NCBI RefSeq assembly: GCF_004193775.1
Contig: NC_041002.1
Location: 18,967,535-19,031,534 of the forward strand
From: Glycine soja
Taxonomy: Eukaryota > Streptophyta > Magnoliopsida > Fabales > Fabaceae
Direction: 5' to 3'
DNA length: 64,000 bases
Shown here: piece after piece, positions 7,275 to 57,805 of the stretch
How the letters are laid out: each line of letters opens with the position of its first letter
Numbering within the stretch: the first letter of the stretch is position 1
The notes under the pieces: generated by a model
Seen by the model: the letters and a program-made list of their open reading frames with translations, nothing else
Database searches by the model: none
Told to the model about the DNA's origin: nothing
Position numbers and translations under genes: made by a program

Positions 7275-9024
7275 TGTCGCAACCAACACTTCGGCGGGAG
7301 GGCGACGCGAGACTCACAGGTGCATCTTCCAAAGAAGGAAAACACACGAAGTCACCACCAACGTTTATTCGAGGAAAACGTTGGAAAAACTGGAAAAGGT
7401 GTGGTCTACGAACTTTAAGTATGAAAGGTTCGGGAGTTGTACTTACGCACGGGGAAGGTATTAGCACCCCACGCGTCTATCACAAGGGACGACAGCCTTT
7501 AATCAAATGTGCAAACATGACTTCAATTTGTTTTATTTTCTCTTTTTTACGCTTTTTATGTCTTTTTATGCCTTTTATATTTTTTATCTTTTTGTGGTCG
7601 GTAAGGGTGTTTCCCTTGCTCCTATGTATTCCTCAATTGTGATAAGGAAATCAAACTTACGTAGTTCTTTGAGAACTAAATGTTGGCTAAATTGTTTTTA
7701 TCCTTTTTTGCAAGATATATTTTGATTGAATGAAAGGTCATTTAAGGCATTGGACCATTAAACGATCTTTCGATTCTTTTGAAAGGAAAGAAAACATTAA
7801 GGCATTGGACCATTAATGATCTCTTGGTTTTTTTGAAAGAGGTGACAAAGCTTATGTGTTGGTTTTAGGTCTTTAAAATCCACGTTTAACCAATAAAATC
7901 GAAAAGGACCATTTCAAGGAGTTGGATGTTAAAAATGGTTTTTTAGGTGATGACAAAAGCTTGGTTTATGAATTGATTTTAGCCTTAGTTTCACTTTGGT
8001 TATTAGTCAATTTGATTAAGAAAGAAAATCCCAAAGAAAAATGTCCGATTGATTTTTTTTTATTATTTTATTTAAAGATATTTTTTTGATTATTATATTA
8101 TTATTTTGCCTCTTTTTGGTTTTAAACATGGTTACAGCATGAAAGATCGGCCAGATTTTATTCTAACAGAAATTAAAAGACGTTAAAACTCAAGTGATCA
8201 GTGGAAATTTATTTTATTTTTTGATTAGGCGAGAAAGTGACTTAAATATATGACTAAAGCACACCAAAAGGGGGTACAGAAAGCAAATGAAATAAAAATA
8301 AAAGCACGCGAAACAAGTGGGGACCACTAAGGGTACATAGAATGAATTGAATGGTTCGATTTCGGAAACTTACCGGTTGAAGACCAAACAACGACGAAGA
8401 ACGATGAAGAATGGTGGAAAACCTTCGCGAAATCGCCCACGGAAACGTCTCGGAAGCGTTACGGAAGCGCCTCGGCTTGGATTTTCTTCACGTAAACATT
8501 TTTTCTCACTAATTTTAAGTGATTCTCAGATAGCAGGAGGGTTGAACGGATTTGTTCTACCCTCCTTCCCCTATCTATAGGGAAAAGAGGGAGGTGGTTG
8601 CCGCCTAGCTCGCCTAGGCGAGCTGGGTTGCTTCCACCAGAAGGCACCGCCTTCTGTTGGAACATCCTAGAAGGCCCAAGTGGGTCTGATTGCTATTTGC
8701 ACACCCCTATTTACTAAATACACCCTCTGTTCTTTTTTTGCTGATTCTTTTTCCGTAACGTTACAGAACTTTACGAATTATGTAACGATACTTGTTTTCT
8801 TTCCGTAATGTCATGAAAACTTACGGATTACGCAATCGTCCCCTCTTTGGCTTCCGGAATGTTACGGAACTTTACGGATTGCACATTGACACTTCCTTTC
8901 AACTCCCAACATGTCGTGGAACTTCACGGATTGCCTAACAATAGGTGTCAAGTACCTCGAAGTGGTCAAGCGAAGGTCGCATCTCACCAAACAGATGGTC
9001 CCCGCATGAAATTAGGGTATGACA
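7275..9024 (-). repeat. 5' LTR of element A (1750 bp)
   Basis: On the minus strand it begins TGTCATACCC at 9024 and ends TTGCGACA at 7275, like the LTRs of B, J, H and I. Inside are a U3 rich in TTCCGTAAC/GTTACGGAA repeats, an 18-bp palindrome and TATA box, a GTAAGT donor, GCGTTGGACC-type stem-loops and a TACGTA module (about 7617-7675). Confidence 0.88.
8369..8624 (-). promoter_or_regulatory. LTR promoter and first-exon splice donor of element A
   Basis: A perfect palindrome AGCTCGCCTAGGCGAGCT (8624-8607) lies upstream of CCCTATAGATAGGGG (about 8580-8568), in a TATA context. About 200 nt further the minus strand has CAACCG|GTAAGT (GT at 8373-8372). The same order is in B, J and H. Start site and splicing are inferred. 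Confidence 0.6.
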
Positions 9025-9026
9025 AG

Positions 9027-12000
9027 CACATATTACCTCTAAATCCTGAGTGTTCCCCGGTAAAACAAAAGTTGAGGAGGATGAAGCCCGAGACGTCCTT
9101 GAAAATAAAAGAAGAGGTAAAGAAACAATTTGACGCTGGTTTTTTGGCTGTCGCTCGATACCCGGAATGGGCTGCCAACATTGTACCAGTCCCTAAGAAG
9201 GATGGGAAGGTACGAATGTGCATAGATTATCGGGACCTGAATCGAGCCAATCCCAAGGACAATTTCCCTCTGCCGCACATTGATATCCTCGTGGATAATA
9301 CGACCAATTTCGCTTTGTTTTCCTTCATGGACGGGTTCTCCGGTTATAATCAGATAAAAATGGCGCTTGAGGATATGGAAAAGACTATCTTCGTCATCCT
9401 GTGGGGGATGTTTTGTTATAAGGTGATGTCTTTTGGGCTCAAGAACACCGAGGCAACTTATCAACGGGCTATGGTGGCTTTGTTCCATGATATGATGCAC
9501 CGAGAAATCGAGGTCTATGTCGACGACATGATCGCCAAGTCTAAGACCGAGGAGGAACACCTTGTCAACTTGCGAAAGTTGTTCGAAAGGCTTAGGAAGT
9601 ATCGATTGAGGTTAAACCCCGCTAAGTGCACCTTCGGGGTCAAGTCAAGGAAATTACTGGGTTTCATCGTAATCCAGAAAGGGATAGAGGTTGACCCTGA
9701 AAAGGTGAAAGCCATCTTTGAAATGCCAGAACCTCGTACCGAGAGGAAGGTCCGAGGTTTCTTAGGGCGTTTGAACTACATCGCCAGATTCATATCACAG
9801 CTCACCGCTATCTGTGAGTCGTTGTTCAAGCTCTTACGCAAAACCCAATCCGTCCGCTGGAACGAGGACTGTCAAGAGGCGTTTGGAAGGATCAAACAGT
9901 GCCTCATGAACCCTCCCGTGCTTATGCCACCGGTGCCCGGAAGACCTCTCATCTTGTATATGAATATTTTGGACGAGTTAATGGGGTGTATGCTGGGGCA
10001 ACATTACGAGTCTGGGAAAATAGAGCGCGTCGTCTACTATTTGAGTAAGAAGTTCATGACCTGTGAAATGAACTACTCCCTGTTGGTAAGAACGTGTTGT
10101 GCTTTAGTCTGGGCGTTCCACTGTCTAAGACAATACATGTTGAGCCATACCACCTGGCTGATATCCAAGATGGACCCGATCAAGTACATCTTTGAGAAGC
10201 CTGCTCTAATGGGGCGGATCGCCTGGTGGCAAGTTTTGCTATCTGAGTTCGATATAATCTATGTCACCCAAAAGGCGATAAAGGGAAGCGCCTTGGCAAA
10301 TTATTTGGCTCAGCAGCCTCTCAACGACTATCAACCCATGCATCCCGAGTTTCTGGATGAGGACATCATGGCCTTGTTTGAGGAAAAGCTAGATGAGGAC
10401 CGGGACAAGTGGATCGTGTGGTTTGATGGAGCGTCAAACGTTCTAGGCCATGGCGTTGGGGCTGCATTGGTCTCTCCGGAAAATCAATGTATACCTTTCA
10501 CAGCCAGGTTGGGGTTCAACTGCACCAACTACATGGTTGAATATGAAGCATGTGCCTTGGCCGTCCAGGTAGCAATTAACTTCGATGTCAAGTTACTCAA
10601 GGTATACGAAGACTCGGCGCTGGTGATTCACCAGCTGAGAGGGGAATGGGAAACTAGAGACCACAAGTTGATACCCTACCAGGCCTATATCAAGGAATTG
10701 GCTGGTTTCTTTGATGAGATCTCCTTCCATCATGTTCCCCGAGAGGAAAATCAAATGGCGGATGCGCTTGCCACTTTAGTGTCCATGTTCCAGCTAACAC
10801 CGCATGGAGACCTACCGTACATTGAGTTCAGGTGTCGTGGAAAACCCGCATATTGTTGTCTGGTGGAAGAAGAACGGGACGGTAAGCCTTGGTATTTCGA
10901 TATCAAGCGATACGTTGAAAGCAAAGAGTACTCACCGGAGACTTCCGAAAACGACAAAAGGATGTTGAGGAGATTGGCGGCCAACTTCTTCGTGAGCGGA
11001 AGCATACTATACAAGAGAAACCATGACATGGTTCTGCTACGCTACGTGAACACTAAGGAAGCTGAAAACATGCTGGGGGAGGTCCATGAGGGCTCTTTTG
11101 GTGTGCACGCTTATGGACACGCCATGGCTAGGAAGATCTTAAGGGCGGGTTACTATTGGCTCACCATGGAGAGCGATTGTTGTCTCTATGTGAGGAAGTG
11201 TCACAAATGCCAGACGTTTGCAGACAATGTCAATGCTCCGCCCTTGCCTCTGAATGTCTTGGCCGCACCGTGGCCGTTTTCCATGTGAGGAATAGATGTG
11301 ATTGGGGCCATAGAGCCTAAAGCTGCAAACGGACACTGTTTCATCCTAGTGGCGATCGATTACTTCACTAAGTGGGTCGAAGCCGCATCGTACACTAGCG
11401 TCACCAGGAGTGTGGTGGTCAGGTTCATTAAGAGGGAGATCATCTGCCGATATGGTTTGCCGAGGAAGATTATCATAGACAATGGCACCAACTTGAATAA
11501 CAAGATGATGGGGGAAATGTGCGAGGAGTTTAAGATCCAACATCACAATTCCACACCCTACAGACCAAAGATGAATGGAGCCGTGGAGGCAACCAATATG
11601 AATATCTAGAAGATGACCGTGTCATACAAGGATTGGCACGAGATGCTCCCATTCACATTACATGGTTACCGAACCTCAGTGTGCACGTCAACCAGGGCAA
11701 CACCGTTCTCATTAGTATATGGAATGGAGGTTGTGCTACCGTTTGAGGTGGAAGTCCTGTCATTAAGAGTCTTGGCGGAATCCGGATTAAAGGAATCGGA
11801 GTGGGCCCAAGCACGTTTCGATCAACTTAATTTCATAGAAGGCAGGCATTTGGCCGCCATGAGTCACGGGCATTTATATCAGAAACGAGTGAAGAACGCT
11901 TTTGACAAGAAGGTATGCACGCACATGTTCAGCGAAGGGGACTTGGTGCTGAAGAAAGTCTCCCAAGCTCTGAAAGACAACAGAGGAAAGTGGGTCCCGA

Positions 12001-12125
12001 ACTACGAAGGGCCTTTCATTGTAAAAAGGGCTTTCTTGGGAGGGGCCCTGGTGCTCGCCAACATGGATAGCGAGGAGCTACCTTCACCCGTGAACTCCGA
12101 TGTTGTCAAGCGATACTATGCTTAA
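9027..12125 (+). pseudogene. Element B pol: RT, two RNase H domains, integrase; two nonsense codons
   Basis: Single frame of about 1,030 codons. RT has KKDGKVRMCIDYRDLN, FSFMDGFSGYNQ and the catalytic YVDD (near 9520). The first RNase H-like domain (about 9940-10310) seems degenerate at its catalytic Asp. A second, archaeal-like RNase H (WFDGASN about 10420, YEACAL, DSALVIHQL, MADALA about 10760) is typical of Tat elements. Integrase has an HHCC finger (11085-11215) and the D, D, E residues in IDYF, IDNGTN and GAVEA. TGA (11286-11288) and TAG (11607-11609) interrupt it, and three codons are missing after 11609 relative to L. The natural stop is at 12123. Confidence 0.93.
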
Positions 12126-14090: not shown

Positions 14091-14093
14091 GAA

Positions 14094-15343: not shown

Positions 15344-17189
15344 CCAAGGTATCCGTACTTTTGTTATTAACATTACTGTTTTCTGTTATTGTCTATGTTG
15401 CTATTAACATTACTGTTTTCTGTTATTGTCTATGTTGTTACTAACATTACTGTTTTCAGTTACTGTTTTTTTTTCTGCTAGAATTTGGCATTATGGCTCT
15501 CAGTTATTTCACCACTGTTTTTTTGCGACTTACCATTTCGTGCGCTTTTTCGTTTACCTTGTGGTTAGACGTGAAGAGGTAGTGTGCGCCCTCGTCCACA
15601 CGACCTTTTCAGAAAAAAAGGAAATAAACAAATGATAATAACTTAAAAAGAGGGGAAAGAAAGAAAAAAGAGAGAGAAAAAAGAAAAATAAGTTGTCTAG
15701 CTGAAAAACCAACATGCTTTTGAAAAGAGATAACTTTCAGCTTTTCTTTGAAAAAAAATTCACTGATCATAACCAGTTTTTGAAAGAAAATGTGTGTAAT
15801 ACACCTGAAGGGTGAATGCTGTGAAAATTTTCCTGAACACCCAAAATAAACTCAGATGAATGCATGAATTGATAAAAGAACATATTTTGGAAACACTGGG
15901 TTGACTTAAATAGAGAAAATGAATCCTGAGCCCTAGTATCACATGACCAAAAAAACTTGATGCTTGAGTGTCCACATAGGTGCATGCATAACCAGTTTTG
16001 CATGAAATTTCCTAATCATCATTGTTGCATGTGTATCATGGAAATAATGTGGGGCATCCCCTTTATCCCCGAACCGTTGGCCAAATCCTGACATATATCA
16101 TGTCCAGCCGTTCTACAAGCCTTGAGCCAAAATCCCAACTTACCATAAACCTTGACCCAGGGTGAGAATGTCAATCCTTGCCCTCAGAAGAAAACAAAAA
16201 AGAAAGAAAATTCTCCATCAAAAGAGGGGGAGAAAGCAAAAAAAATAAAAAAGAAAGAAAGAAAATTCCCAATCGAAGAGTGGGAGAAAGCAAAAAAAGA
16301 AAGAAAATTCCCAATCAAGGATCGAAAAAAAGCAGAAGAAATATGCAGAAAGGTCTTTGGACTAGACAATATCTGAACAATACAGAATTGTCACCAAGTA
16401 AACAAAAAAAGAAAGGAAACCACGACCTAAAGTGGTCCTCTCCCTTTGATTGCCAACCAAAATCATGTGCGTCGGTGGCTTGTTCACCTCACACTAAACA
16501 AAAACAGAAATGGAAAAGGCCAAGAACACTCAAAGCCAAAATTCTCACAAAGAAACAAACCGTTCCCAAGAAAAAGTCCTATTGATCCATGATCACGCAT
16601 GTAATCTTTGATTTGATAGGAAATGATTCGCAAAATCAAGTCATGACATATCTATGGTTTGGAATTAGGATAAAACACTTACCTGTGTGAAGTTGAATCA
16701 CATTGAGTGATTTTCTTCTATTTTTGTTGAACCCAGTGATTCCTCTAAATGGTCATTTAGAAATGAAATGCTGACATCCAAAATCTCATTTATGGTTATG
16801 AGAAAATTTCATCAGTATACTCTCCTTCTCCGATAAACACATCGTTTTCCATCCAAAAAAAGCATATGTTGCTCTGATCAGTTGGAAGTTTTGTCTCTTT
16901 ACTAAAGCATGTTCACATTTTAGTGAAGAAAACAACGAGACTATTTTAGTCTCACAGTTATCAAGAACTACGTAGGTCTGAGTTCCTCATCACAAATTGA
17001 GGATACCTATGAGCAAGAGCCTCGCTTTTGTCGGCCGCCCCACAATCTCTGTCACACTAACCCTGAAGTCAGGTGACATGCAGAGATACATAAGTAATTT
17101 CTCCGCACCAGACTACCTCTGTCAAGCACTAACCTGTGAAGTTAGGGGGCAAGCGGAAATACCGAAGTGGTTATCCGTATAAACATTCT
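15344..17189 (+). other. Element B 3' UTR, unique part
   Basis: No supported coding. It includes a 37-bp direct repeat x3 (about 15365-15460, spaced ACATTACTGTTTTC), purine-rich repeats, and at 16961-17022 a copy of the LTR-type module AACTACGTAGGTCTGA ... GAGGATAC. Several short open frames look like chance. Confidence 0.6.
16190..16340 (+). repeat. Purine-rich tandem repeats in the B 3' UTR
   Basis: Three imperfect units of 42-54 bp share AAGAAAGAAAATTC followed by CAATC and GGGAGAAAGCAAAAAA. The strand is almost pure purine. Confidence 0.75.
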
Positions 17190-18050
17190 TTTGCTATCTG
17201 TAAGACTCAACGCCTGATAGCACGCAGAGACTAACGTTGTCATTTGCACCTTTGTCATCCAAGAGAGAGCGAGTCCGATGAAAAGCGGGGGTACCTTATG
17301 GTTATCCGCACCTTTTTTCAACCAGAGGCAAGCGAGCTCGTTGACACGCAGAGACTAACGTCATCATCTGCACCATTGTTAGCCAGAGACGGCGAGTCCG
17401 ATGACATGCGGGGGTACCTTATGGTTATCCGCACCTTTTGTCAACCAGAGGCAAGCGAGCTCGTTGACACGCAGAGACTAACGTCGTCATCTGTACCTTT
17501 GTCATCCAGAGACGGCGAGTCCGATGACATGCGGGGGTACCTTATGGTTATCCGCACCTTTTTTCAACCAGAGGCAAGCGAGCCCATTGACACGCAGAGA
17601 CTAACGTCATCATCTGCACCTTTGTCATCCAGAGACGGCGAGTCCAATGACATGCGGGGGTACCTTATGGTTATCCGCACCTGTTGTCAACCAAAGGCAA
17701 GCGAGCCCATTGACATGTCGAGACTAACGTCGTCATCTGCACCTTTGTCATTCAGAGACGGCGAATCCGATGGCATGTGGGGGTACCTTATGGTTATCCG
17801 CACCTTTTGTCAACCAGAGGCAAGCGAGCCTGTTGACGCACAGAGACTAACATTGTCATCTGCACCTTTGTCATCCAGAGACGGCGAGTCCGATGACACA
17901 TGGGATTACCTTATGGTTACTCGCACCTTTTGTCAACTAGGGGGCAAACGAGCCCATTGACGCAAAGAGACCAACATCGTCTTCTGCACCTTTTGTCATC
18001 CAGGGACAGCGTGTCAGGTTTTTACTCTCACCGTCCATAAACATTCAAGC
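17190..18050 (+). repeat. 123-bp tandem array before the 3' LTR of B
   Basis: AGACTAAC recurs with spacings of 123-124 bp (17228, 17352, 17475, 17598, 17721, 17844, about 17968). Each unit consists of two diverged half-units of about 61 bp, both beginning CACCTTT-TGTCA and ending in TTATCCG or CATCTG. The period is 41 codons, so a frame stays open from 17244 to 17960. The same repeat type, reversed, is at 63775-64000 in element I. Confidence 0.9.
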
Positions 18051-18198
18051 CCGATGACACGTGGGATTCTTCTTTGCTGGGCAAAGACGATTGGGTGCAA
18101 TGGCGAAGGTCCCGCTGGCGGGGATATTGACCGATCGAATGATGGTCCGCTCAAACAAAATTAGTGTCTTATCTTTACTTCGCTTTTATCTCCAATAA

Positions 18199-18220: not shown

Positions 18221-19912
18221 TGTCATACCCTAATTTCGTCCGAGGACCATTTGTTTGGTGGGATGCGACCTTCGCTTGACCACTTCGAGGTACTTGACAC
18301 CCATCATTAGGCAATCCATGAAGTTCCATAACATTCCAGAAGTCAAAGAGGGGATGGTTGCGTAATCCATAAAGTTTCGTGACATTACTGAAAGAAAACA
18401 AGTATCGTTACGTAATTCATAAAGTTCCGTAACATTACAGAAAAAGAATCAGCAAAAAGGGCAAAGAGGGGATGTATTTAGTAAACAAGGGTGTGCAAAT
18501 AGCAACCAGGCCCACTTGGACCTTCTAGGGTGTTCCAACAGAAGGTCGTGCCTTCTGGTGGAAGCAACCCAGCTCGCCTGGGCGAGCTGGGCGACAACCA
18601 CCTCCCTTTTTTCCCTTATAAATAGGGGAAAGAGGGCAAAGCAAATTTGTTCAACCCTCCTGGTATCTGAGATTCACTTGAAATTAGTGAGAAAAATTGT
18701 TTCCGTGAAGAAAATCCAAGCCGAGGCGCTTCCTTAACGCTTCCGAGACATTTCCGTGGGCGATTTCGTGAAGGTTTTCCACCGTTCTTCATCGTTCTTC
18801 GTTCGTTCTTCGATCTTCAACCGGTAAGTTCCCAAAATCGAACCTTTCAATTCTTTCTATGTGCCCTTACTGGTCCCCACTTGTTTCGCGTGCTTTTATT
18901 TTTATTTTGTTTGCTTTCCGTACCCCCTTTTGACGTGCTTTAACCATTTATTTAAGTCATTTTCTCGCCTAAATCAAAAATAAAATAAATTTCCACTGAT
19001 CATTTGAGTTGTAATATCTTTTAATCTCTGTTAGAATAAAATTCGACCAATATTTCACGCCGTAACCACGTTTAAAACCAAAAAGAGGCAAAATAATAAT
19101 ATAATAATAAAAAAATATCTTTAAATAAAATAATAAAAAAAATCAATCAGACGTTTTTCTTTGGGATTTTCTTTCTTAATCGAATTGACTAATAACCAAA
19201 GTGAAACTAAGGCTAAAATCAACTCACAAATCAAGCTTTTGTCATCACCTAAAAACCATTTTAAAAGGTCCAACGCCTTGAAATGGTCCTATTCACTTTT
19301 ATTGGTTAAACATGGACTTTTAAAAGCCTAAAATCAACACATAACTTTGTCACCTCTTTCAAAAAACCAAGAGATCATTAATGATCCAACGCCTTAATGT
19401 TTTCTCTCCTTTCAAAAGAATCGAAAGATCGTTTGATGGTCCAACGCCTTAAAACGACCTTTTGTTCAATCAAAATATATCTTGCAAAAAGGATAAAAAC
19501 ATCTTAACCAACGTTTAGTTCTCAAAGAACTACGTAGGTCTGATTTCTTTATCACAATTAAGGAATACGTAGGAGCAAGGGAAACACCCTTGTCGACCAC
19601 AAAAAGATAAAAAAAAAGGGCGTAAAAAGACATAAACATAAAAAAGGGGAAAATAAAACAATTGAAGTCATATTTGCACACTTGATTAAAGGTTGTCGTC
19701 CCTTGTGACGGACGCATGGGGTGCTAATACCTTCCCCGTGCGTAAATACAACTCCTGAACCTTTCACACTTAAAGTTCGTAGACCACACCTTTCCGGTTT
19801 TTCCGACGTTTTCCTCGAATAAACATTGGTGGCAACTCCGCGCATTTTCCTTCCTTGGAAGACGCACGCGTGAGGGCCGCGTTGCCCTCCCGCCGAAGGG
19901 TAGGTTGCGACA
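18221..19912 (+). repeat. 3' LTR of element B (1692 bp)
   Basis: Starts TGTCATACCC and ends GGTTGCGACA. It contains the U3 repeats, the palindrome (18570-18588), TATAAATA (18617-18624), the donor CAACCG|GTAAGT (18824), three stem-loops (19256-19287, 19376-19399, 19430-19456) and the TACGTA module (19527-19585). Confidence 0.9.
18570..18829 (+). promoter_or_regulatory. LTR promoter and splice donor of B
   Basis: AGCTCGCCTGGGCGAGCT at 18571-18588, then TATAAATAGGGG at 18617, then about 200 nt of GC-balanced sequence rich in TTCTTCGTTCGTTC and a consensus GTAAGT donor at 18824. The distances are similar in the other Tat LTRs. Confidence 0.6.
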
Positions 19913-25244: not shown

Positions 25245-25246
25245 CT

Positions 25247-28967: not shown

Positions 28968-29442
28968 TATCTTTTTTACATTTCAAAGACATCAATGTCT
29001 TTTGTAAAGACTTCAATAATGTATTCTTTACATTTCAAAGACTTCAATGTCTTCAGTCATTTACGCCTTCAAAAGATAACAATGTCTTCATTTACATTTC
29101 AAAGACTTCAATGTCTTCAGTCATTTACGCTTTCAAAAGACGACAATGTCTTCATCTACATTTCAAAAGACTTCAATGTCTTCAGTCATTTATGCTTTCA
29201 AAAGATGACAATGTCTTCATTTACATTTCAAAAGACTTCAATGTCTTCAGTCAATTACGCTTTTAAAAGACCACAATGTCATCATTTACATTTCAAAAGA
29301 CTTGAATGTCTTCAGTCATTTACGCTTTTAAAATACCACAATGTCTTCATTTACATTTCAAAAGACTTCAATGTCTTCAGTCATTTACGCTTTTAAAAGA
29401 CCACAATGTCTTCATTTACATTTCAAAAGACTTCAATGTCTT
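28968..29442 (+). repeat. Hairpin tandem array of element F, left part
   Basis: Alternating AAGACTTCAATGTCTT and AAGAC-ACAATGTCTT inverted repeats, with TCAGTCATTTACGCTTT and TCATTTACATTTC between them, give a dimer of about 66-67 bp. The array is cut by J at 29443 and resumes at 36946. Confidence 0.9.
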
Positions 29443-31066
29443 TGTCACACCCTAATTTCATCCGGGTACCATTGTTTGATGGCATGCAACCTTTGCTTGA
29501 CCGCTTCGAGGTACTTGGCACCCTTTGTTGCACAATACGTGAAGTTCCGTGACATGCCGGGGATCAAAAGGAAGCATTGTTGCACAATCCGTGAGTTTCC
29601 GTAACATGCCATAAATCAAAAGGAAGCATTGTTACGCAATCCGTGAGGTTCCGTAACATTCCGAAAGCAAAAATAAGAGTAATTACGTGACCCGTAAAGT
29701 TCCGTAACCTTACGGAAAGAAAACAAGTATCGTTACGAAATTCGTAAAATTTTGTAACGTTACGGAAAAAGAATCACCAAAAAAAGCAAAAGGGTGTACT
29801 TAGAAAAAAAGGGGGTGCAAATAGAAACCAGGCCCACTTGGGCCTTCCAGGATGTTCCTCCACAAGGCGGTTGCTTCTGGAGGAAGCAACCTGGCTCGCC
29901 TGGGTGAGCTGGGTGGCAAGCTCCTCCCCTATTTTCCTATAAATAGGGGGAGGAGTGGAGGAGAAAGGGGTTCAGCCCTTCTGGTACTTCGTAATCACTT
30001 AAAATTAGTGAGAAAAATTGTTTTCGTGAAGAAAATCCAAGCCGAGGCGCTTCCGTAACGTTTTCGTAACGTTTCCGTGGGTGATTTCGCGAAGATTTTC
30101 AACCGTTCTTCGTCGTTCATCGTTCGTTCTTCGTCGTTCTTCGGTCTTCAACCGGTAAGTTCCCGAAATCGAACTTTTCAATTCATTCTATGTACCCTTG
30201 GTGGTCCCCATTTGTTTCGGGTACTTTTATTCTCGTTTCATTTACTTTCCGTACCCCCTTTTGACGTGCTTTAGTCATTTACTTAAGTCATTTTCTCGCC
30301 TAATCAAAAAATAAAATAAATTTCCACCGATCATTTGATTTGTAATGTCCGTTAATTTCTGTTAAAATGAAATCCGACCGTTCGGTCATGCTGTAACCAC
30401 ATTGGAAACCAAAAAGAGGTAAAATAATAATATAATAATCAAAAAATATCTTTTAGTAAAATAAACCAAAAGAAAATCAATCGGACGTTTCTCTTTTTGG
30501 GATTTCTCTTTCTTAATTGAATTGACTATTAACTAAAGTGAAACTAAGGCTAAAATCAACCCGAAAAGTCAAGCTCGTCCGCAAAAAAAAATCACTAAAA
30601 AGGATTTTAAGGTTTGATGCCTCAATTTTTCTCACCAAGTAAAAATGGGTCATTTTAAGGTCCAACGCCTTAAAAGGACCTCCTTCCATGTAAAAAGAAT
30701 CGCTTGATTTGCCCCTTTAGAAAGAACTACGTAGGTCTGATTTCCTCTTCAATGAAGGGTACGTAGGAGCAAGAGCCTCGCTTTTGTCGACCTCAAAAAT
30801 AAAAAGAAATAATAGATTAGGTACACAATTTCACACAATTCTAAAATTAAGGCTGTTGTCCTTTGGGACAAACGTGAAAGTTGCTAATACCTTCCTCAAA
30901 CGTAAATACAACTCCTGAATCTGGAATATTCTTCATGACCGGTTTCCTTCGGTTTTTCCGATGTTTTCCACAAATAAACGTTGGTGGCGACTCCGCGCAT
31001 TTTCCTCCTTTGGAAGACGCACCCGTGAGCCTCGCCTCGCTCGCCCGCAAAAGGGTAGGTTGCGAC
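29443..31066 (+). repeat. 5' LTR of element J (1624 bp)
   Basis: Starts TGTCACACCC and ends GGTTGCGACA. Contains GGCTCGCCTGGGTGAGCT near 29893, TATAAATAGGGG near 29939, donor CAACCG|GTAAGT (30155) and the TACGTA module (30723-30775). Confidence 0.92.
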
Positions 31067-31068: not shown

Positions 31069-31086
31069 TTGGCGACTCCACTGGGG
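31069..31086 (+). other. Primer binding site of element J (tRNA-Arg type)
   Basis: TGGCGACTCCACTGGGGA, two nt after the LTR end; identical to the site in A. Confidence 0.88.
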
Positions 31087-31780
31087 ACTATTTTTGTGAG
31101 TTAGGCCTATTTTGGGAATTTGTGGAATTGTGAAACTTTGTGTGTGCATTTTTTTTGAACTGTGTAAATATAATAAATGTTGTCTTTTCCACAATTTTAC
31201 ACTGCATTCTAAGCACCCACGGGTTTGAGTAAAAAAGGGGCCCTATACCCAGGTCCATGGGAATTTAAGGAGTGGAGGTGAATCTATGGTCATGCTTGGT
31301 CTCTGACTTGCTTGATAATAGTGAAACCTCATCTAGAGCTTTCTCTCTTTATAATGTGTTGTCTCTGGTATTCCATACCGCCGCAATATTATTATCTTGA
31401 GTGATGATACCTCTAGAGAATAGCCATGTGAGATATGGATCATTGGGAGTAGTTATTAGAGACCCCTAGATATTATCCTATAGGTCCCCAAATAGGGGCA
31501 TGGAGCAAACACGCTCTGTGCCATTTGTTCTCATGCATTCTTCTACGAATAGCACATAAATTATAGTTTTGCTGTATAGCTAGTGATATCTTGTCTCTTT
31601 AGAGTAATGCGTTACTTTTTAATGCATACGTTGGGGCGCCGCAATGCCTAGAACGTAGTATTAAAAAGAGGGATCTTTTTCGGTCTCGTATATGTAAATT
31701 ACCACTTGTTTTTCTTTTCGTCTCATGCATACACATTGCATCATTCATATCGGAGCCTTGATTCACCCCTTTTTAGGTAA
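31087..31780 (+). other. Leader of element J with putative ORF1 splice acceptor
   Basis: Non-coding, colinear with the H leader (57816-58489). Ends CCCCTTTTTAG (AG 31775-31776) then GTAA and the ORF1 ATG at 31781. Confidence 0.65.
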
Positions 31781-33500
31781 ATGATGGGGACAAATCAAAT
31801 CGGAAAAAGATTCTATTAAGTCAAGATTAAGGGCCTAGATGTCACCAGCCTTAAGGAGTTGGGATGGTTGATGGGACCACAAAGTGTACAGAAAGATTTT
31901 TGATTCGACCACAGCGGAGGTATTTACGGAAGCCGTTGTATCCCTCGCCCAATACTATGACCAGCCGTTGAGATGCTTCACGTTTGGGGACTTCCAAATA
32001 GTACCGACTTTTGAAGAATTTGAGGAGATATTAGGATGCCCTCTTGGGAGAAGAAAACCGTATCTTTTCTTCGGGTTTCTTCCCTCCTTGAGCAAGATTG
32101 CAGCTGTGGTCGGGGATTCGGCGAGGGAGTTGGATCGTATGAAGCAAACTCGAAACGGCGTAGTGGGCCTACCGCGGAAATACTTGGAAGGCAAGGCAAG
32201 GGATATGGCGAGTCAAGAAGAGTGGGTCCCATTTGCGAATATACTAGCTTTGCTAATCTTTGGGGTTGTCCTCTTTCCAAACATGGACGGTGTGGTGGAC
32301 CTAGCTGCAATTGATGCTTTCCTTGCATAACACCATAGCAAGGAGAGCCCAGTGGTAGCTATCTTGGCGGACTTATTTGATACATTTGACCGAAGGTGCG
32401 AGAAGAACAACGCACGGATTGTCTGTTGTTTACCCGCTCTTTGTGTGTAGTTGGTTTCGCACCTATTCCAACAAGACATAAGGCACCCATGTCCGCTTCA
32501 AAGTTATCGCTCGTGCGTCGAAAAGAGAAGAGTAGATTGGGACCAATACTTGGCTGGGATAGGAGGCAGCACAATCAACTGGTTTCCTCGATGGAAGGAA
32601 GGAAAGGAGGGAGTGCTCTTCTCATGTGGGGACTACCCAAACGTTCCGTTGATAGGGACGAGGGGTTGTATTAACTATAATCCCGCACTTGCTATAAGAC
32701 AGTTAGGGTACCCTATGAGGGGAGCAGGGACAGAAGAGAGGCATGAATGGCTAAGAGTTCATACACGAGGGTTAGATTGGCTCTCCAAGTTGAAAATTAT
32801 CAATGAGGAGAAGTTCGAAGCTTTGGAAGAGGATGAAGAAGTCCAAGCTCTAAAATCAGAGCTAGGAAAGGCAAGACTCACCAAAGAAAAATTCAAGTTA
32901 GTCGCTATAGACATCCGGAAAGAGTGTGCCAGATTACGAGAGGAAAATGCGGCTACCGCAAGAGCCCTCGAACGAGAAACCAAGAGGGCTCGCAAGGAAG
33001 AGCATGGCCAAGATAAATTCCGAGGAGCTTTGTGGGGCAGCAACAATGAACTCAAGCTCTGGAGAGAGGAAAGAGACCAGTCACGAGTACACGACATGGT
33101 CTTAAAGGAGGAGTTAGCTGCTTGCTCAAGATCTAAGAGGAGTTTGGCCCAACACTTAGAAGCCACGGAGCAAAGCATGCTAGCTATAATAGGGTAATAC
33201 AAAGAAGAGTTAAACTAGTCTTTGACCCATGAACAAAAACTTGTAGAGGACTTCGCACAAGCATACACCGAGAAGGAAGCAAGAGGGAGAGTGATTGATG
33301 CATTGCATCAAGAAGCGACCATGTGGATGGATAGGTTCGCCTTGACCTTAAATGGAAGATGGAAGTCAAGACCTCCCGCGACTACTAGCCAAAGCAAAGC
33401 CATCGCTGAAGTGTGTTCAGCCCCAGAGGAAATTCACGGGCTAATCAATTACTGTCAACACATGATAGATTTAATGGCCCATATAATTAGAAACCGTTAG
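31781..33500 (+). pseudogene. Element J ORF1 (DUF7745-like), heavily disrupted
   Basis: Same protein as ORF1 of A and H: MMGTNQ start, TAEVFTEAVVSLAQYYDQPLRCF, EILGCPLGRRKPYLFFGF, GVVGLPRKYLEGKARDM, then a Lys/Glu-rich coiled coil and the C-terminus CQHMIDLMAHIIRNR. Faults include TAA in the 12th-15th codon area (31816), a deletion near 31875, TAA after LA (32327), TAG (32446), loss of about 50 codons near 32725 (MRGA jumps to EERHEWLRV) and TAA at 33195. The C-terminal end, missing in A, is intact here. Confidence 0.82.
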
Positions 33501-33744
33501 TTTATGTTGTAACACTTTTGTATGATCTTGGCTAGATAAAAGCTTTTGTTCCTTTTTATAAAAAGAGAAGTTTTGAAACTCATCACGTTGTCTAAAAAGG
33601 CCTTGAGGTGGATCCAAGTGCTCTGATCATTCATTAGCATATTCATGTTTTGGTGGCATACTCACCACTGTTTGTTTCTTTAGGGAACTCACCATAACTA
33701 AAAAAGCGCAATGGAACCCCTATAACACCCGATCCAGAAGTAAG

Positions 33745-33957: not shown

Positions 33958-34533
33958 TACGAAATTCGTAAAATTTTGTAACGTTACGGAAAAAGAATCA
34001 CCAAAAAAAAGCAAAGGGGGATGTACTTAGTAAAAAAGGGGGTGCAAATAGCAACCAGGCCCACTTGGGCCTTCCAGGGTGTTTCACCGCCTTCTGGAGG
34101 AAGCAACCTGGCTCGCCTGGGCGAGCTGGGTGGCAAGCTCCTCCCCTATTTTCCTATAAATAGGGGGAGGAGTAGAGGGGAAAGGGGTTCAGCCCTTCTG
34201 GTACTTCGTAATCACTTAAAATTAGTGAGGAAAATTGTTTCCGTGAAGAAAATTCAAGCCGAGGCGCTTCCCTAACGTTTCTGTGGGTGATTTCGTGAAG
34301 ATTTCCAACCGTTCTTCGTCGTTCGTTGTTTGTTCTTCGTCGTTCTTCGGTCTTCAACCGGTAAGTTTCCGAAATTGAACTTTTCAATTCATTCTATGTA
34401 CCCTTGGTGGTCCCCATTTGTTTCGCGTACTTTTATTCTCGTTTCATTTACTTTCCATACCCCCTTTTGCCGTGCTTTAGTCATTTACTTAAGTCATTTT
34501 CTCGCCTAATCAAAAAATAAAATAAATTTCCAT
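33958..34533 (+). repeat. 3' LTR of element J, left part (5'-truncated)
   Basis: Matches the 5' LTR from about 29730 onward. Palindrome near 34112, TATAAATAGGGG near 34156, donor GTAAGT at 34361. Interrupted by K at 34534. Confidence 0.88.
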
Positions 34534-36198: not shown

Positions 36199-36940
36199 TC
36201 CACCGATCATTTGATTTGTAATATCCGTTAATTTCTGTTAAAATGAAATCTGACCGTTCGGTCATGCCGTAACCATGTTGGAAACCAAAAAGAGGTAAAA
36301 TAATAATATAATAATCAAAAAATATCTTTTAGTAAAATAAACCAAAAAAAATCAATCGGACGTTTCTCTTTGGGATTTCTCTTTCTTAATTGAATTGACT
36401 ATTAACTAAAGTGAAACTAAGGCTAAAATCAACCCGCAAAGTCAAGCTCGTCTGCAAAAAAAAATCACTAAAAAGGATTTTAAGATTCGATACCTCAGTT
36501 TTTCTCACCAAGTAAAAATGGGTCATTTTAAGGTCCAACGCCTTAAAAGGACATCCTTCCAAGTAAAAAGAATCGCTTGATTTGCTCCTTTAGAAAGAAC
36601 TACGTAGGTTTGATTTCCTCTTCGATGGAGGGTACGTAGGAGCAAGAGCCCTGCTTTTGTCGACCTCAAAAATAAAAAGAAATAAAAGATTAGGTACACA
36701 ATTTCACACAATTCTAAAATTAAGGCTGTTGTCCTTTGGGACAAACGTGAGAGGTTCTAATACCTTCCTCAAACGTAAATACAACTCCCGAATCAAGAAT
36801 ATTCTTCATGACCGGTTTCCATCGGTTTTTCCGACGTTTTCCACAAATAAACGTTGGTTGCAACTCCGTGCATTTTCCTCCTTTGGAAGACGCACCCGTG
36901 AGCCTCACCTCACTCGCCCGCAAAAGGGTAGGTTGCGACA
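36199..36940 (+). repeat. 3' LTR of element J, right part
   Basis: Resumes at CCACCGATCATTTG and ends GGTTGCGACA. TACGTA module at 36596-36648. Followed by the TSD GTCTT. Confidence 0.9.
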
Positions 36941-36945
36941 GTCTT

Positions 36946-37880
36946 CAATCATTTATGCTTTCAAAAGACGACAATGTCTTTATTTACATTTCAAAAGACT
37001 TCAATGTCTTCAGTCATTTACGCTTTCAAAAGACGACAATGTCTTCATTTACATTTCAAAAGACTTCATTGTCTTCAGTCATTTACGCTTTCAAAAGACG
37101 ACAATGTCTTCATTTACATTTCAAAAGACTTCAATTTCTTCAGTCATTTACGCTTTCAAAAGACGACAATGTCTTCATTTACATTTTAAAGACTTCAATG
37201 TCTTCAGTCGTTTATGCTTTCAAAAGACGACAACGTCTTCATTTACATTTTAAAGACTTCAATGTCTTCAGTCGTTTATGCTTTCAAAAGACGACAATGT
37301 CTTCATTTACATTTCAAAAGACTTCAATGTCTTCAGTCATTTACGCTTTCAAAAGATGACAATGTCTTCATTTACATTTCAAAAGACTTCAATGTCTTCA
37401 ACCATTTACGCTTTCAAAATACGACAATGTCTTCATTTACATTTCAAAAGACTTCAATGTCTTTAGTCATTTACGCTTTCAAAAGACGACAGTCATTTAT
37501 GCTTTCAAAAGACGACAATGTCTTCATTTACATTTCAAAAGACTTCAATGTCTTCAGTCGTTTACGCTTTCAAAAGACAACAATGTCTTCATTTACATTT
37601 CTAAAGACTTCAATGTCTTTAGTCATTTACGCTTTCAAAAGACGACAATGTCTTCATTTAAATTTCAAAAGACTTCAATGTCTTCAGTCGTTTACACTTT
37701 CAAAAGACATCAATGTCTTCATTTACATTTCATAAGACTTCAATGTCTTCAGTCATTTACGCTTTGAAAACACGACAATGTCTTCCTTTACATTTTGAAT
37801 GATTTCAATGTCTTCAACCATTTACGCTTTGAAAAGGCTGAAACATGTTCATTTACATTTCAAAGACTTCAACGTCTTTA
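36946..37880 (+). repeat. Hairpin tandem array of element F, right part
   Basis: Continuation of the 66-67-bp dimer array with AAGACGACAATGTCTT and AAGACTTCAATGTCTT. About 13 dimers, decaying towards the right. Long open frames cross it only because the period is near a multiple of three. Confidence 0.9.
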
Positions 37881-38149
37881 GTCTTTTACAGGACTCAATG
37901 TCCTTGTTTGTGCTTCATAGGACATGATGTCCTCTATTTTTATTCTTTGAAAAAAAAAGGAAAAGAAAAAAAGAAGAACTTTAGATGTCTTCCACTCTAC
38001 AAAACTTCAATGTCCTCATGTTTTCTTGGTTTCACTTCCTTGGTTTTTGCCAGTTGCCTGGTCGAATAGCAAGATCACTCGAACGAAATTAGTGTCCTTA
38101 TCTTTACTTCCCTTTTATTTCCAATAAAAGATAAGTAAAGAGGGGCAAC
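37881..38149 (+). other. End of the F 3' UTR with polypurine tract
   Basis: Degenerate repeat units and A-runs, then TTAGTGTCCTTATCTTTACT and the tract AAAAGATAAGTAAAGAGGGG with CAAC (about 38126-38149). Same architecture as before the B 3' LTR. Confidence 0.7.
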
Positions 38150-38607
38150 TGTCATACCCTAATTTCATCCGGGGACTATCGTTTGTTGATCTTTTGATCC
38201 TTGTTTGTCAACTTACGGTGTTGAATGCTAGTTATAGTGAGAAACAGATGATCATTCAATGTTTTGATCAAGAATGCGAAAGATATCGAAAGAGAGGGGT
38301 AAAAGGGTCATTTCAGGGGGCTTTTCTGGACCTTGGCTCGCCCAGGCTAGCCTCTAGCTTGCCTAGGTCCTCCAAATAGCTTAGGGGTGAAGTAACCAGC
38401 TTGCCTGGGTTAGCAAGGTTACTTCAGGTTGTATTTCGCTTTAATTTTGAGGAGATGAACAATTTTGTTCCTTAATCAAAATGATTTTGGTTCAATCCTA
38501 TGTTTTTGCTCAAAACTTTGTGCGATTCCAATGCTTTGACAACTTATCTTTGGCATTCATTCATGTTTAGTTCTTTGTCACATTACTCACTGCATTTTTG
38601 TCCTTTT
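38150..38607 (+). repeat. Start of the F 3' LTR, then LTR-like orphan sequence and L gag leader
   Basis: TGTCATACCCTAATTTCATC and about 20 more bases match Tat LTRs; then the sequence diverges. GGCTCGCCCAGGCTAGCC and GCTTGCCTGGGTTAGC near 38335-38415 look like decayed promoter palindromes. The last ~100 bases resemble the leader before gag, ending in the acceptor-like TCCTTTTAG (38608-38609). The boundary between F and L is not resolved. Confidence 0.5.
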
Positions 38608-38674
38608 AGGAGAAAACACTATAACTAAACATGCTCTAAGGCACCCCTATCGAACCCGTTCTAGGACTAGAGTC

Positions 38675-45818: not shown

Positions 45819-46830
45819 CTTAGTGAGCATATTTAACTGAAATTAGTGAGAAGGAGAAAAAGGAAGAAAAATCAACGCCGAGGTGCTTCCATAACGCTTC
45901 CATGACGTTTCCGTGATCAATTCCATGAACGTTCTTCGTCGTTCTTCATCATTTCTTCGTTGTTCATCGTTCTTCGACCGGTTAATTTTTTATTTCGAAG
46001 CTTTGAATTCATTCTATGCACCCTTAGGGGTCCATCCTTGCTTTGTATGTCTTCATCTTCATTCTTCGGTATTCTTTTTCTTTGTTTTAAGCAAGTTTCG
46101 ACCGATCGTTTAAGCTGTAATCTCACTTAATGTTAAAATGAATTTCAACCGACTGTTTGTGTTGTAATCTCGTTTAATCACCTGTAAAATAAAATTCAAC
46201 CGATCGTTTATGTTGTAACCTCGGTAAATCATCAAAAAGGTAAGTTTCAACCAGTCATTTACTTTGAAAGTTCGCTTTTAATGAGTTAAGAAATAACCAA
46301 TTGAAACCAAAGCTAAAATCAACTCACAAATCAAGCTTTGTCCACAAGAAGATCGTTTCAATCCATTCAAAGGTACAACGCCTTAACGGTCCCTTTTTAC
46401 TTTTACGGTTAAAACAAACCGTTTAAAAGTCTAAATTCAACACCCCGCATAACTCTTTTGCTTTTTAAAGAATTACGTAGGTCCGAGTTCTTCATCACAA
46501 TTGAGGATACATAGAAGAAAAAGCCCCACTTTTGTCGACCCCAAAAGGATAAAAACATAAAAAGGGAAATAAAATAAATTAGAAGTCCTGATTTTGCACA
46601 TTTGATTAAAGGTCGCCATCCCTTGTGACGGACGCGTGGGGTGCTAATACCTTCCCCGTGCGTAAACAACTCCTGAACCTTTTATTCTTAAGATTCATAG
46701 ACTCACATTTTTGGTTTTTTTTAACGTTTTCCTCGAATAAACATTGGTGGCGACTCCGTGTGTTTTCCTTCCTTGGAAGACACATTCGTGAGCCTCGCGT
46801 TGCCCTCCCGCCGAAGGGTAGGTTGCGACA
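45819..46830 (+). repeat. Truncated Tat LTR (3' two-thirds)
   Basis: Begins within the transcribed leader (AAATTAGTGAGAA) and ends GGTTGCGACA. The donor position is mutated (CGACCG|GTTAAT at 45981). Degenerate TACGTA module at 46470-46520. U3 and promoter are missing. Confidence 0.82.
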
Positions 46831-52900: not shown

Positions 52901-53230
52901 ATCTTCCTTTAAAGATGTCACAACTTGGTTGGCAGAGATAAACATCATACCCTTACTCACTCAAGAATCATCAAACACCACACTTTTATCAAAACAGTTC
53001 AACAAGACATGGTTGGAAGATAACCACTCCATACCAAGAATAACATAAATCTGGCTCAAAGGCAAACAAATCAAATCAATCAAGAATATCCTACCAGAAA
53101 TCTCCACAGAACAATTCAAACACACATCAGAAGTTAACACAAAACCACTAGTAGGGGTCTCTACTACTAGATCTTTATTTAAAGAAAACACAGAAAGCAT
53201 AAGTTTTCCTACACACAAACAAAGAACCAC
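49930..53230 (-). pseudogene. Element G pol: protease tail, RT, RNase H, integrase, chromodomain-like end
   Basis: Minus strand from 53230: protease C-terminal part (LSQIYVILGMEWLSSNH) without the catalytic Asp; RT with [41 protein letters not shown] and [10 protein letters not shown]; RNase H with VYCDASKMGLGGVL and the DALSRK end; integrase finger HPGATK/CLVCQKAK and core MDFVVGLPRT, VSDRDPRF; C-terminal domain GPFQILKKVGPVAYQIALP and a chromo-like tail with KHLRGKEIPLVKVIC. Stops at 52961, 52652, 52166, about 52154, 51038, 50433 and 49977; a 1-nt deletion near 50715 shifts the frame. Not functional. Confidence 0.92.
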
Positions 53231-53621
53231 ACAACAATCATAACCATCACAAATTCCTACTTAGTTATTCTTGAGAGATGATGACTCAAGACATTAACAC
53301 CCACTTTCCATCATTTTCATTTTCTGATCGCTTGCCATATCATTCCACTGCCCTTCACAAATTATACAGGTGGCCAGTCTGATAATCCATGACCCGGCAT
53401 TGAAATTCATGGTATAACAGACATCATAAAAACAAATTCAATATAACTACAACAATCAAATCTCTATAGCTCATTAAAACACAACTATTGAGTAAGTGCT
53501 AATAGAAAACAATGAACATCAAACATCAGAAAACAACCAACACCAAGCATTCAACAAACAACCAGAGAATGCACAGAAAAACATACCAGACTCACAACTC
53601 ACTGGCCGAAAGGTTCGACCT
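53231..53621 (-). other. Leader of element G directly abutting pol (gag deleted)
   Basis: Only about 390 bp separate the primer site from the protease tail. No gag codons or CCHC knuckle are recognisable, so a deletion joins leader and protease near 53175-53235. Confidence 0.7.
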
Positions 53622-53633
53622 GCTCTGATACCA
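53622..53633 (-). other. Primer binding site of element G (tRNA-Met type)
   Basis: The minus strand reads TGGTATCAGAGC, 5 nt from the LTR. Confidence 0.88.
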
Positions 53634-53638
53634 CTAAA

Positions 53639-56198: not shown

Positions 56199-57805
56199 TG
56201 TCATACCCTAATTTCGTCCGGGGATTATTACTTGTTGACATGCAACCTTTGGTTAGCCGCTTTGAGATACTTGGCGTCCTTTGTTTGCACAATAAATGAA
56301 GTCCCGAGACGTGTCAGAAATCAAAAGGAAGTAGACTAGCGTAATCCGTGAAATTCTGTGATGTGGCGGAAATCGAAAAGAGGTGTTTTTGCGTAATCCG
56401 TGGGTTTCCGTAACTTCTTCAAAAGCTAAAAAAGAGTAAATATATATTCCGTAAGGATTCGTAACCTTGCGGAAGGAAAATAAGTATCGTTACGAAATTC
56501 GTAAGGTTTCATAACGTTACGAAAAAAGAATTACCAAAAAAATAGAAGGGGGGTGCATTTAGTAAAAAAGGGGGTACAAATAGCAATCTGGCCCACTTGG
56601 GCCTTCAAGATCCTTCCTCCAGAAGGCTGTTGCTTCTGGAGGAAGCAACCTTGCTCGCCTGGGCGAGCTGGGTGCCAAGCTCCTCCCCTATTTTGCTATA
56701 AATAGGGGGAGGAGTGAAGAAGAAAAGGGTTCAGCCTTCTTGGCATTTCTTATTCTCTTAAATTTGCTAAGGAAAATTGTTTCCGTGAAGAAAATCCAAG
56801 CCGAGGCGCTTCCGTAACGTTTCTGTGAGTAATTACGCGAAGATTCTCGATCGTTCTTCAAATATTCATCGTTCGTTCTTCGTTTTCTTCAGTCTTCAAC
56901 GGGTAAGTACTTCAAACCGAGTTTTTCAATTCATTCTATGTACCCGTGGTGGTCCACATTTTGTTTCATGTATTTTTATTCTCGTTTTCATTCGCTTTTT
57001 ATACCCCCTTTTGACGTGCTTAAGCCATTTATTTAAGTCATTTCTCGCCTAATCTAAAAATAAAATAAATTTCCACCGATCGTTTGAATTGTATCATCCG
57101 TTAATTTCGGTTAAAATGAATTCCGACCGTTCGGTTGTATCGTAACCACGTTGGAAATCAAAAAAGAGGTAAAATAATAATATAATAATAAAAAAAATGC
57201 CTTTTAGTAAAATAAAGCGAAAAAAAACAATCGGACGTTTTTCTCTTTGGGATTTCTCATTCTTAATTGAATTGACTAATAACTAAAGTGAAACTAAGGC
57301 TAAAATCAACTCGCCTAGTCAAGCTCGTCCACAAAAATAGGGTTTTGAAAGTTTATCATTTCAGTTTCTTACCAAGTAAAATGGATCATTTTTAAGGTCC
57401 AACGCCTTAAAATGATCACCTTTCAAGTAAAAAGAATCGCTTGATTCACGCTTAAGAAAGAACTACGTAGGTCTGATTTCCTCTCCAAAGGAGGGTACGT
57501 AGGAGCAAAAGCCCCGCTTTTGTCGACCTCAAAAAATAAAAAGAAATAAAATTTAAGGTAACACAATTTCCACAAATCTAAAAAATAGGCTGTTGTCCTT
57601 TGAGACAAACGTGAGAGGAGCTAATACCTTCCTCAAGCGTAAATACAACTCCCGAACTTAGAATTTTCCTTTTGACCGGTTTCTTTCAGTTTTTCCGACG
57701 TTTTCCACAAATAAACGTTGGTGGCGACTCCGTGCATCTTTCCTCCTTTGGAAAGCGCACCCGTGAGCCTCGCCCTCGCTCGCCTACGAAGGGCACCTTG
57801 CGACT
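56199..57805 (+). repeat. 5' LTR of element H
   Basis: Starts TGTCATACCC; the end reads CTTGCGACT instead of GGTTGCGACA. GCTCGCCTGGGCGAGCTG near 56644, TATAAATAGGGG near 56697, donor CAACGG|GTAAGT (56903), TACGTA module 57459-57510. Confidence 0.9.

What the first reader, a model, noticed from the sequence alone, without database searches (positions are those of the whole stretch)
8369..56908. Conserved GTAAGT splice donor inside Tat LTRs, with acceptors before ORF1 and gag
Seen: six LTRs have a GTAAGT donor 150-210 bp after the TATA box (8373 minus, 18824, 30155, 34361, 56903, 61700 minus), five of them as CAACCG|GTAAGT or CAACGG|GTAAGT. Pyrimidine-rich AG sites precede ORF1 (6397 minus, 31776, 58485) and gag (3978 minus, 33683, 38609). 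Inference: a short untranslated LTR exon is spliced alternatively to ORF1 or gag, while unspliced RNA keeps the primer site. The pro-RT intron of Ogre is known; an LTR-located common donor with ORF-specific acceptors would be a complex-retrovirus-like programme.
Basis: partly seen in the sequence, partly recalled or inferred. Interest (0 to 1): 0.82.

Follow-up and report, generated by a model that had tools for sequence, protein, structure and literature searches.

The report
LTR splice donor in Ogre retrotransposons
A very abundant family of plant jumping genes carries, inside its terminal repeats, a well-preserved RNA-splicing start signal, with matching end signals just before two of its genes, which suggests that it makes spliced messages as complex retroviruses do, although no RNA evidence was available to prove it.

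Summary
All six LTRs carry CAAC[C/G]G|GTAAGT, 206-217 bp after a TATA box, and all six acceptor AGs lie where stated. A seventh related LTR has lost the donor. The donor motif occurs 9,673 times in the same genome, its reversed control 0 times. Of 60 LTRs picked without regard to the donor, 51 keep GTAAGT. The best support is anatomical: in 17 of 17 ORF1-bearing elements a TTTAG lies 5-7 nt before the ORF1 ATG; splicing from the LTR would remove 19-43 upstream ATGs and in 13 of 17 leave none. The gag acceptor is strong but present in only 8 of 17 aligned elements. The donor lies upstream of a conserved AATAAA, an order known from foamy viruses. Best reading: an LTR leader exon is spliced to ORF1 in this Ogre lineage, and to gag in one branch. 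Against it: no transcript data, no spliced retrocopy, and a neighbouring block about as conserved. A new variant of a known kind; the regulatory programme is inference.

The parts
29938..29945 (+). TATA box of the 5' LTR of element B (217 bp before the donor)
29970..30154 (+). predicted leader exon 1 of element B (start placed 32 nt after the TATA start); no ATG
   Evidence: the start of transcription is inferred, not measured
30155..30160 (+). splice donor GTAAGT in the LTR, element B
31070..31088 (+). primer binding site TGGCGACTCCACTGGGGAC, element B
31752..31776 (+). ORF1 acceptor, intron end ...CCCCTTTTTAG; ORF1 ATG 7 nt later; predicted intron 1622 nt
31872..33197 (+). ORF1 (DUF7745) of element B, in pieces in this copy (31872-32330 and 32451-33197)
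   Evidence: only the second piece was scanned
33659..33683 (+). gag acceptor, intron end ...TTTGTTTCTTTAG, element B; predicted intron 3529 nt
56903..56908 (+). splice donor GTAAGT, element C
58461..58485 (+). ORF1 acceptor, element C; predicted intron 1583 nt
58748..60037 (+). ORF1 (DUF7745), element C
   Evidence: E 2.8e-76
8368..8373 (-). splice donor GTAAGT, element A
7254..7272 (-). primer binding site TGGCGACTCCACTGGGGAT, element A
6397..6421 (-). ORF1 acceptor, element A (intron end ...TTTCACTTTAG, ATG 6 nt later); predicted intron 1977 nt
5581..6036 (-). ORF1 (DUF7745) piece, element A
3978..4002 (-). gag acceptor, element A; predicted intron 4396 nt
2315..3532 (-). gag (Retrotrans_gag), element A
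445..1578 (-). aspartic protease with G-patch, element A
18824..18829 (+). splice donor GTAAGT in an LTR without a primer site after its end
34361..34366 (+). splice donor GTAAGT in an LTR interrupted after about 34532
61695..61700 (-). splice donor GTAAGT in a more diverged LTR without a primer site after its end
38585..38609 (+). gag acceptor of a further gag fragment
45973..45986 (+). homologous place in a seventh LTR; donor lost (TTCGACCG|GTTAAT)

Best explanation
The elements are Ogre-like (Tat) LTR retrotransposons. Transcription starts about 30 nt after the LTR TATA box. The first 165-185 nt or so form an untranslated, mostly AUG-free leader exon that ends at the GTAAGT donor inside the LTR. 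In part of the RNA this exon is joined to an acceptor 5-7 nt before the ORF1 AUG, which makes ORF1 the first open frame of a capped message. In one branch a second acceptor about 60 nt before the gag AUG does the same for gag. Both splices remove the rest of the LTR and the primer site, so only unspliced RNA can be copied, and translation and replication would use separate RNA pools. Shown by sequence: the sites, their order, their conservation and the upstream-AUG arithmetic. Inferred: the start of transcription, actual splicing, alternative use of the two acceptors, and any regulation.
For: Donor exact at 6 of 6 sites and close to the generic consensus. 9,673 genome copies of TCTTCAAC[CG]GGTAAGT, 0 for the reversed control. 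51 of 60 donor-unbiased LTRs keep GTAAGT; of the 9 losses 7 are G+1 to A, 1 is GTAGGT and 1 GTAAGC. On a 67-LTR tree, positions +2 to +6 need 3 changes in all. ORF1 acceptor TTTAG 5-7 nt before the ATG in 17 of 17; exon 1 without ATG in 13 of 17; 19-43 ATGs between donor and acceptor. GC falls from 0.40-0.46 in exon 1 to 0.26-0.34 in the next 400 nt, in the 23 of 26 LTRs where the script placed a TATA box. gag acceptor ranks 1-2 of 254-299 AGs in 7 of 8 elements, with no ATG between it and the gag ATG in the 5 fetched loci that have it. A second DUF7745-bearing group with different LTRs has TAG 2 nt before its ORF1 ATG in 8 of 8, and in 5 of 8 a segment with 0-2 ATGs that ends ACAAAG|GTAGTT.
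Against: No transcript data. No genomic copy with the exon 1-ORF1 junction, although spliced RNA lacks the primer site, so none is expected; the gag-junction search did not complete. The donor hexamer is not uniquely conserved: 8.8% of 443 hexamers need as few changes, and a block at +22 to +33 is about as constant. Over the whole predicted ORF1 intron GC is 0.37-0.42 and T content about that of exon 1, so the drop in GC is confined to its first part. The ORF1 acceptor is only rank 18-26 by a home-made score in 6 of 8 elements, and a stronger AG lies about 390 nt upstream of ORF1 in four. The gag acceptor is absent in 8 and mutated in 1 of 17 aligned elements, and in the two window copies scored one ATG lies between it and the gag ATG. 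One of four window-type elements picked by ORF1 (L097) lacks GTAAGT. ATG absence in exon 1 is not significant per element (shuffles give none in 14-61%), and the elements are related. The second group has no GTAAGT in the stretch fetched upstream of its primer site, and in 5 of its 8 loci the ORF1 frame stays open upstream with an in-frame ATG.
Confidence: 0.62

Rival explanations
1. The donor mainly binds U1 snRNP to silence the poly(A) signal of the 5' LTR, as in foamy viruses; splicing from it is secondary.
For: The first AATAAA lies 133-156 nt after the donor in 59 of the 63 LTRs (of 67) in which the script placed the donor, and 134-156 nt after it in 6 of 6 window LTRs. This is the order of foamy viruses, where U1 on the LTR donor suppresses 5' poly(A) (PMC3694450, abstract and passages).
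Against: Does not explain the acceptors next to ORF1 and gag or the upstream-ATG pattern. AATAAA words are common in AT-rich sequence, and plant poly(A) signals are loose (recalled).
Confidence: 0.15
2. An ordinary 5' UTR intron: the donor is joined to an acceptor upstream of ORF1 or inside the LTR, which raises expression without choosing between ORFs.
For: A strong acceptor-like site, TTCTCTCCCTTATAG|GTCC, about 390 nt before ORF1 ranks first in L015, L016 and L020, and a TTGTAG variant of it first in L017.
Against: Such a splice would leave ATGs ahead of ORF1 (visible in the alignment); the TTTAG next to the ATG is common to all 17 elements.
Confidence: 0.13
3. GTAAGT is an incidental part of a conserved LTR block with another role (promoter, R region, strand transfer), and the likeness among copies is shared descent.
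For: The block TCTTCAAC..GGTAAGT and a second block at +22 to +33 both vary little; the six LTRs are homologous.
Against: Near-perfect donor consensus, change of base composition just after the site, acceptors at the two ORF starts, and a similar layout in a diverged group.
Confidence: 0.1

Closest known systems
Ogre lineage of Tat Ty3/gypsy elements
   Same: ORF1 before gag; a non-coding gap between pro and RT whose end looks acceptor-like by eye; an extra RNase H-like domain between RH and INT. An intron between gag-pro and RT-RH-INT is known from pea and Medicago (PMC6317226, passages).
   Different: No LTR donor or intron upstream of ORF1 or gag is described in the passages seen. The experimental paper (Steinbauerova 2008) is not held.
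Diaspora, a soybean element of the Athila lineage
   Same: Long leader; five donors predicted in the LTR and two acceptors flanking the gag start (PMC1142308, passages).
   Different: Another lineage, prediction only, no ORF1. The authors state that no intron upstream of gag had been reported in any LTR element, Ogre included (2005).
Foamy viruses
   Same: Major splice donor inside the LTR R region, upstream of the poly(A) signal (PMC3694450, abstract and passages).
   Different: Animal retroviruses with other genes; no DUF7745 ORF. Here neither splicing nor poly(A) sites are shown.
Cer1 and its CERV protein (C. elegans)
   Same: Ty3/gypsy element with a spliced message for a further protein (PMC3315495, passages), which is needed for export of unspliced RNA (PMC10309623, abstract).
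   Different: CERV includes peptides shared with the start of gag; its role is shown by experiment, that of ORF1 is unknown.
Insect endogenous retroviruses (ZAM, Beagle subclades)
   Same: A short exon upstream of gag acts as the donor exon of a spliced message (PMC12992720, passages).
   Different: The exon codes a short peptide and is joined to env, downstream of pol; here it is untranslated, ends inside the LTR and would be joined to ORF1 or gag.
BARE1 (barley Ty1/copia)
   Same: Splicing and separate RNA pools for translation and replication (PMC3735527, passages).
   Different: The intron lies at the end of gag, not from an LTR donor.

Membership tests
Ogre lineage (Tat) | extra ORF between the 5' LTR and gag | tested here: met
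   DUF7745 in window ORFs; 11 of 20 fetched loci show ORF1 between the primer site and gag, 9 of 20 do not
Ogre lineage (Tat) | gag-pro and RT-RH-INT frames separated by a short gap | tested here: met
   non-coding gap after pro, then RT, in the five loci looked at (L011, L012, L015, L017, L020); splicing there not tested
Ogre lineage (Tat) | additional RNase H between RH and INT | tested here: met
   RVT_3 between RT_RNaseH and Integrase_H2C2 in window 8817-11288; that frame lies in a separate fragment, but 79-87% identical RT sequence follows pro in five of the family's loci
Ogre lineage (Tat) | primer site for tRNA-Arg | tested here: inconclusive
   TGGCGACTCCACTGGGGAC or a variant or truncated form after the LTR in 15 of 20 loci; assignment to tRNA-Arg is recalled
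Ogre lineage (Tat) | placement in a reverse-transcriptase tree | not tested
   no tree of RT built
Foamy-type LTR donor | donor inside the LTR upstream of a poly(A) signal | tested here: met
   AATAAA 133-156 nt after the donor in 59 of 63 LTRs placed; sequence only, the signal is not shown to work
Foamy-type LTR donor | splicing from the donor and poly(A) silencing by U1 | not testable with these tools
   needs RNA and reporter assays
Complex-retrovirus-like programme | one common donor used with ORF-specific acceptors | tested here: inconclusive
   acceptor-like sites at ORF1 in 17 of 17 and at gag in 8 of 17; use not shown
Complex-retrovirus-like programme | a spliced product that controls export or expression of unspliced RNA | not testable with these tools
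   ORF1 function unknown

The most novel reading that the evidence does not exclude
An abundant plant retrotransposon lineage runs a complex-retrovirus-like programme: an LTR donor placed upstream of the poly(A) signal both silences the 5' poly(A) site and feeds a spliced early ORF1 message and a spliced gag message, while unspliced RNA is kept for replication, with ORF1 acting like Rev or CERV in export of that RNA.
Probability: 0.2. Interest if true: 0.85.

Novelty: new variant of a known kind. Interest (0 to 1): 0.6.

Why it matters
It offers an answer to how ORF1 (behind 19-43 upstream ATGs) and gag of these elements can be translated at all, and how translation and copying of one RNA are kept apart. 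It is directly testable in existing RNA data. It also means that the host genome holds 9,673 exact copies of this donor motif; those still next to a working promoter are promoter-plus-donor cassettes that could start chimeric messages into nearby genes (inference).

Tried and rejected
Spliced retrocopies: a pattern for the exon 1-ORF1 junction gave 0 hits in the whole genome. The matching search for the exon 1-gag junction did not complete, so nothing is known there.

Exon 1 coding the start of gag: rejected, since an A-run length difference between L015 and L016 shifts its frame relative to gag.

GTATGT in the second group about 360 nt before the primer site as its donor: conserved (GTATGT in 7 of 8, GTACGT in L089), but it lies in AT-rich sequence far downstream of the GC-richer segment; not adopted, not excluded.

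Literature: 10 of 10 paper searches used. In the listings and passages seen, none shows an LTR-located donor in use in a plant element; the library is open-licence PMC only, and the key Ogre splicing paper is not held.

The site scores use consensus values recalled from memory, not a trained program.

Full report
What was checked. All six donors follow CAACCG or CAACGG and lie 206-217 bp after the start of a TATA box. GTAAGT occurs 28 times in the window on both strands, so the hexamer alone means little. The LTR sites are strong ones: they match a generic donor consensus (recalled) at 8 or 9 of 11 positions; 1.1% of 6,680 GT sites reach 8 or more and 0.15% reach 9 or more.

Anatomy. Three elements in the window begin with a donor-bearing LTR that is followed by a primer-site sequence. 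A runs from about 8.9 kb leftwards on the minus strand; B from about 29.5 kb and C from about 56.2 kb run on the plus strand. The LTR ends in TTGCGACA in A and B; two bases later comes TGGCGACTCCACTGGGGA, the primer site (truncated in C). ORF1 is a DUF7745 protein; in A it is followed by gag and by a protease with a G-patch. The order is TATA, donor, rest of LTR, primer site, ORF1, gag, so a splice from the donor to ORF1 or gag removes the primer site. Predicted introns are 1977, 1622 and 1583 nt to ORF1 (A, B, C) and 4396 and 3529 nt to gag (A, B).

The same genome. G000, the window's own unnamed assembly of 1.01 Gb, holds 9,673 exact copies of TCTTCAAC[CG]GGTAAGT and none of the reversed control. 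I fetched 20 loci of 9.6 kb, chosen from the 100 places listed as same-strand pairs about 10-21 kb apart; these are biased towards an intact donor. Of the 20, 15 show the primer site (variants and a truncated one counted), 11 an ORF1 match and 16 a gag match. For a sample blind to the donor I used a motif about 100-140 bp upstream of it (3,960 hits, control 0) and took the first 60 places listed, all on contig C1. GTAAGT is at the donor place in 51 of 60. Seven of the nine losses are G to A at +1, consistent with decay of a methylated CHG site; the others are GTAGGT and GTAAGC.

Conservation, told both ways. On a tree of 67 LTRs (the 60 plus the window's seven) the donor hexamer needs 10 changes, 7 of them at G+1, against a median of 22 for the 443 hexamers compared. 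But 8.8% of hexamers need as few, and the bases just before the donor block (TCTTCAA) and a block at +22 to +33 (TTTCAATTCATT) vary about as little. The donor is part of a constrained stretch, not a lone island.

ORF1 acceptor. In 17 of 17 ORF1-bearing elements examined (11 loci, L094-L096 and the three window elements) a TTTAG lies 5-7 nt before the ORF1 ATG. In two branches the AG sits one base apart in the alignment, so the signal is kept while its exact place moved (by eye). L097, picked by ORF1, has the acceptor but no GTAAGT. Between donor and acceptor lie 19-43 ATGs; exon 1 has none in 13 of 17. ATG absence in exon 1 alone is not significant: shuffles give none in 14-61% of cases, and the elements are related. 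Its weight lies in the combination: unspliced RNA hides ORF1 behind 19-43 ATGs, spliced RNA puts it first. By a home-made acceptor score the ORF1 site ranks 3 in two elements and 18-26 of 254-299 AGs in six, so it is not the best-looking AG in most.

Composition. GC falls from 0.40-0.46 in exon 1 to 0.26-0.34 in the 400 nt after the donor, in the 23 of 26 LTRs where the script placed a TATA box. Over the whole predicted ORF1 intron GC is 0.37-0.42 and T content is close to that of exon 1, so the intron is not U-rich throughout.

gag acceptor. TTTGGTTTTTTAG|G or its like precedes the gag ATG by 58-65 nt. It ranks 1 or 2 in 7 of 8 elements scored and is lost in L017; no ATG intervenes in the five fetched loci that have it, one does in each of the two window copies. 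Across the 17 elements aligned it is present in 8, mutated in 1 and absent in 8; two further loci with gag matches (L010, L013) were not put into that alignment.

A second group. A search for DUF7745 in G000 scored 118 of 7,867 candidates and showed two score classes, near 460 and near 355 bits; the window's family is of the second kind. Eight loci of the first class have the same primer site but different LTR sequence and no GTAAGT in the stretch fetched upstream of the primer site. All eight have TAG two bases before the ORF1 ATG. Five of eight show a segment with 0-2 ATGs and GC 0.42-0.55 that ends ACAAAG|GTAGTT, followed by 45-51 ATGs up to the acceptor; in the other three the script did not find that site. 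In five of the eight the ORF1 frame stays open upstream with an in-frame ATG, so splicing is not the only way to a start there, although the length of the T run between differs among copies. This looks like the same plan built from different sequence, but the donor there is weak and its use is a guess.

Poly(A). The first AATAAA lies 133-156 nt after the donor in 59 of the 63 LTRs (of 67) in which the script placed the donor. If it is the working signal, the donor lies inside R and upstream of the poly(A) signal, the order described for foamy viruses, where U1 bound to the LTR donor silences the 5' poly(A) site (PMC3694450, abstract and passages).

What could not be shown. No RNA data are within reach. 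A search for genomic copies with the exon 1-ORF1 junction found none, which is neutral, since spliced RNA lacks the primer site. The same search for gag did not complete.

Mechanism. Most likely: a capped transcript with a short LTR leader exon; partial splicing to ORF1, and in one branch to gag; unspliced RNA for copying. Whether ORF1 helps unspliced RNA leave the nucleus, as CERV does in Cer1 (PMC10309623, abstract), is speculation that the layout invites.

Against what is known. Ogre splicing between gag-pro and RT is established (cited in PMC6317226, passages). For Diaspora, a soybean element related to Athila, LTR donors and acceptors around the gag start were predicted in 2005, with the remark that no intron upstream of gag had been reported in any LTR element, Ogre included (PMC1142308, passages). 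Insect endogenous retroviruses join an exon upstream of gag to env (PMC12992720, passages). My ten paper searches listed no demonstration of an LTR donor in a plant element, within an open-licence library. The finding is a new variant of a known kind: an LTR-donor leader intron in a lineage already known to splice elsewhere.

Noticed in passing
L011, L015, L016, L020 and L007, L009, L019, L021, L024; upstream of the gag ATG: The gag frame is similar in peptide (as KRA-RHPYRTRSKSR-M) upstream of its first ATG in both gag types; a non-AUG start is possible.
   Followed up: partly
+22 to +33 after the donor in the LTR: Block TTTCAATTCATT varies about as little as the donor in 67 LTRs; role unknown.
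   Followed up: no
L006-L025, 85-87 bp before the primer site where that is present: A second primer-site-like TGGCGACTCC lies inside the LTR near its 3' end in 19 of 20 loci.
   Followed up: no
window 28988-29547 and 36816-37984; 62750-63869; 17139-18053: Tandem arrays of 65-, 164- and 123-bp units, three of them a few hundred bp upstream of LTR promoters.
   Followed up: no
L006, L007, L009, L019: Loci with donor and gag but no ORF1 match and no TTTAG-ATGG site.
   Followed up: partly
G000 C12, C16, C28 and others: 33 DUF7745 matches of the higher score class with open frames of 471-575 aa, 32 of them without a stop inside, suggesting young copies.
   Followed up: no
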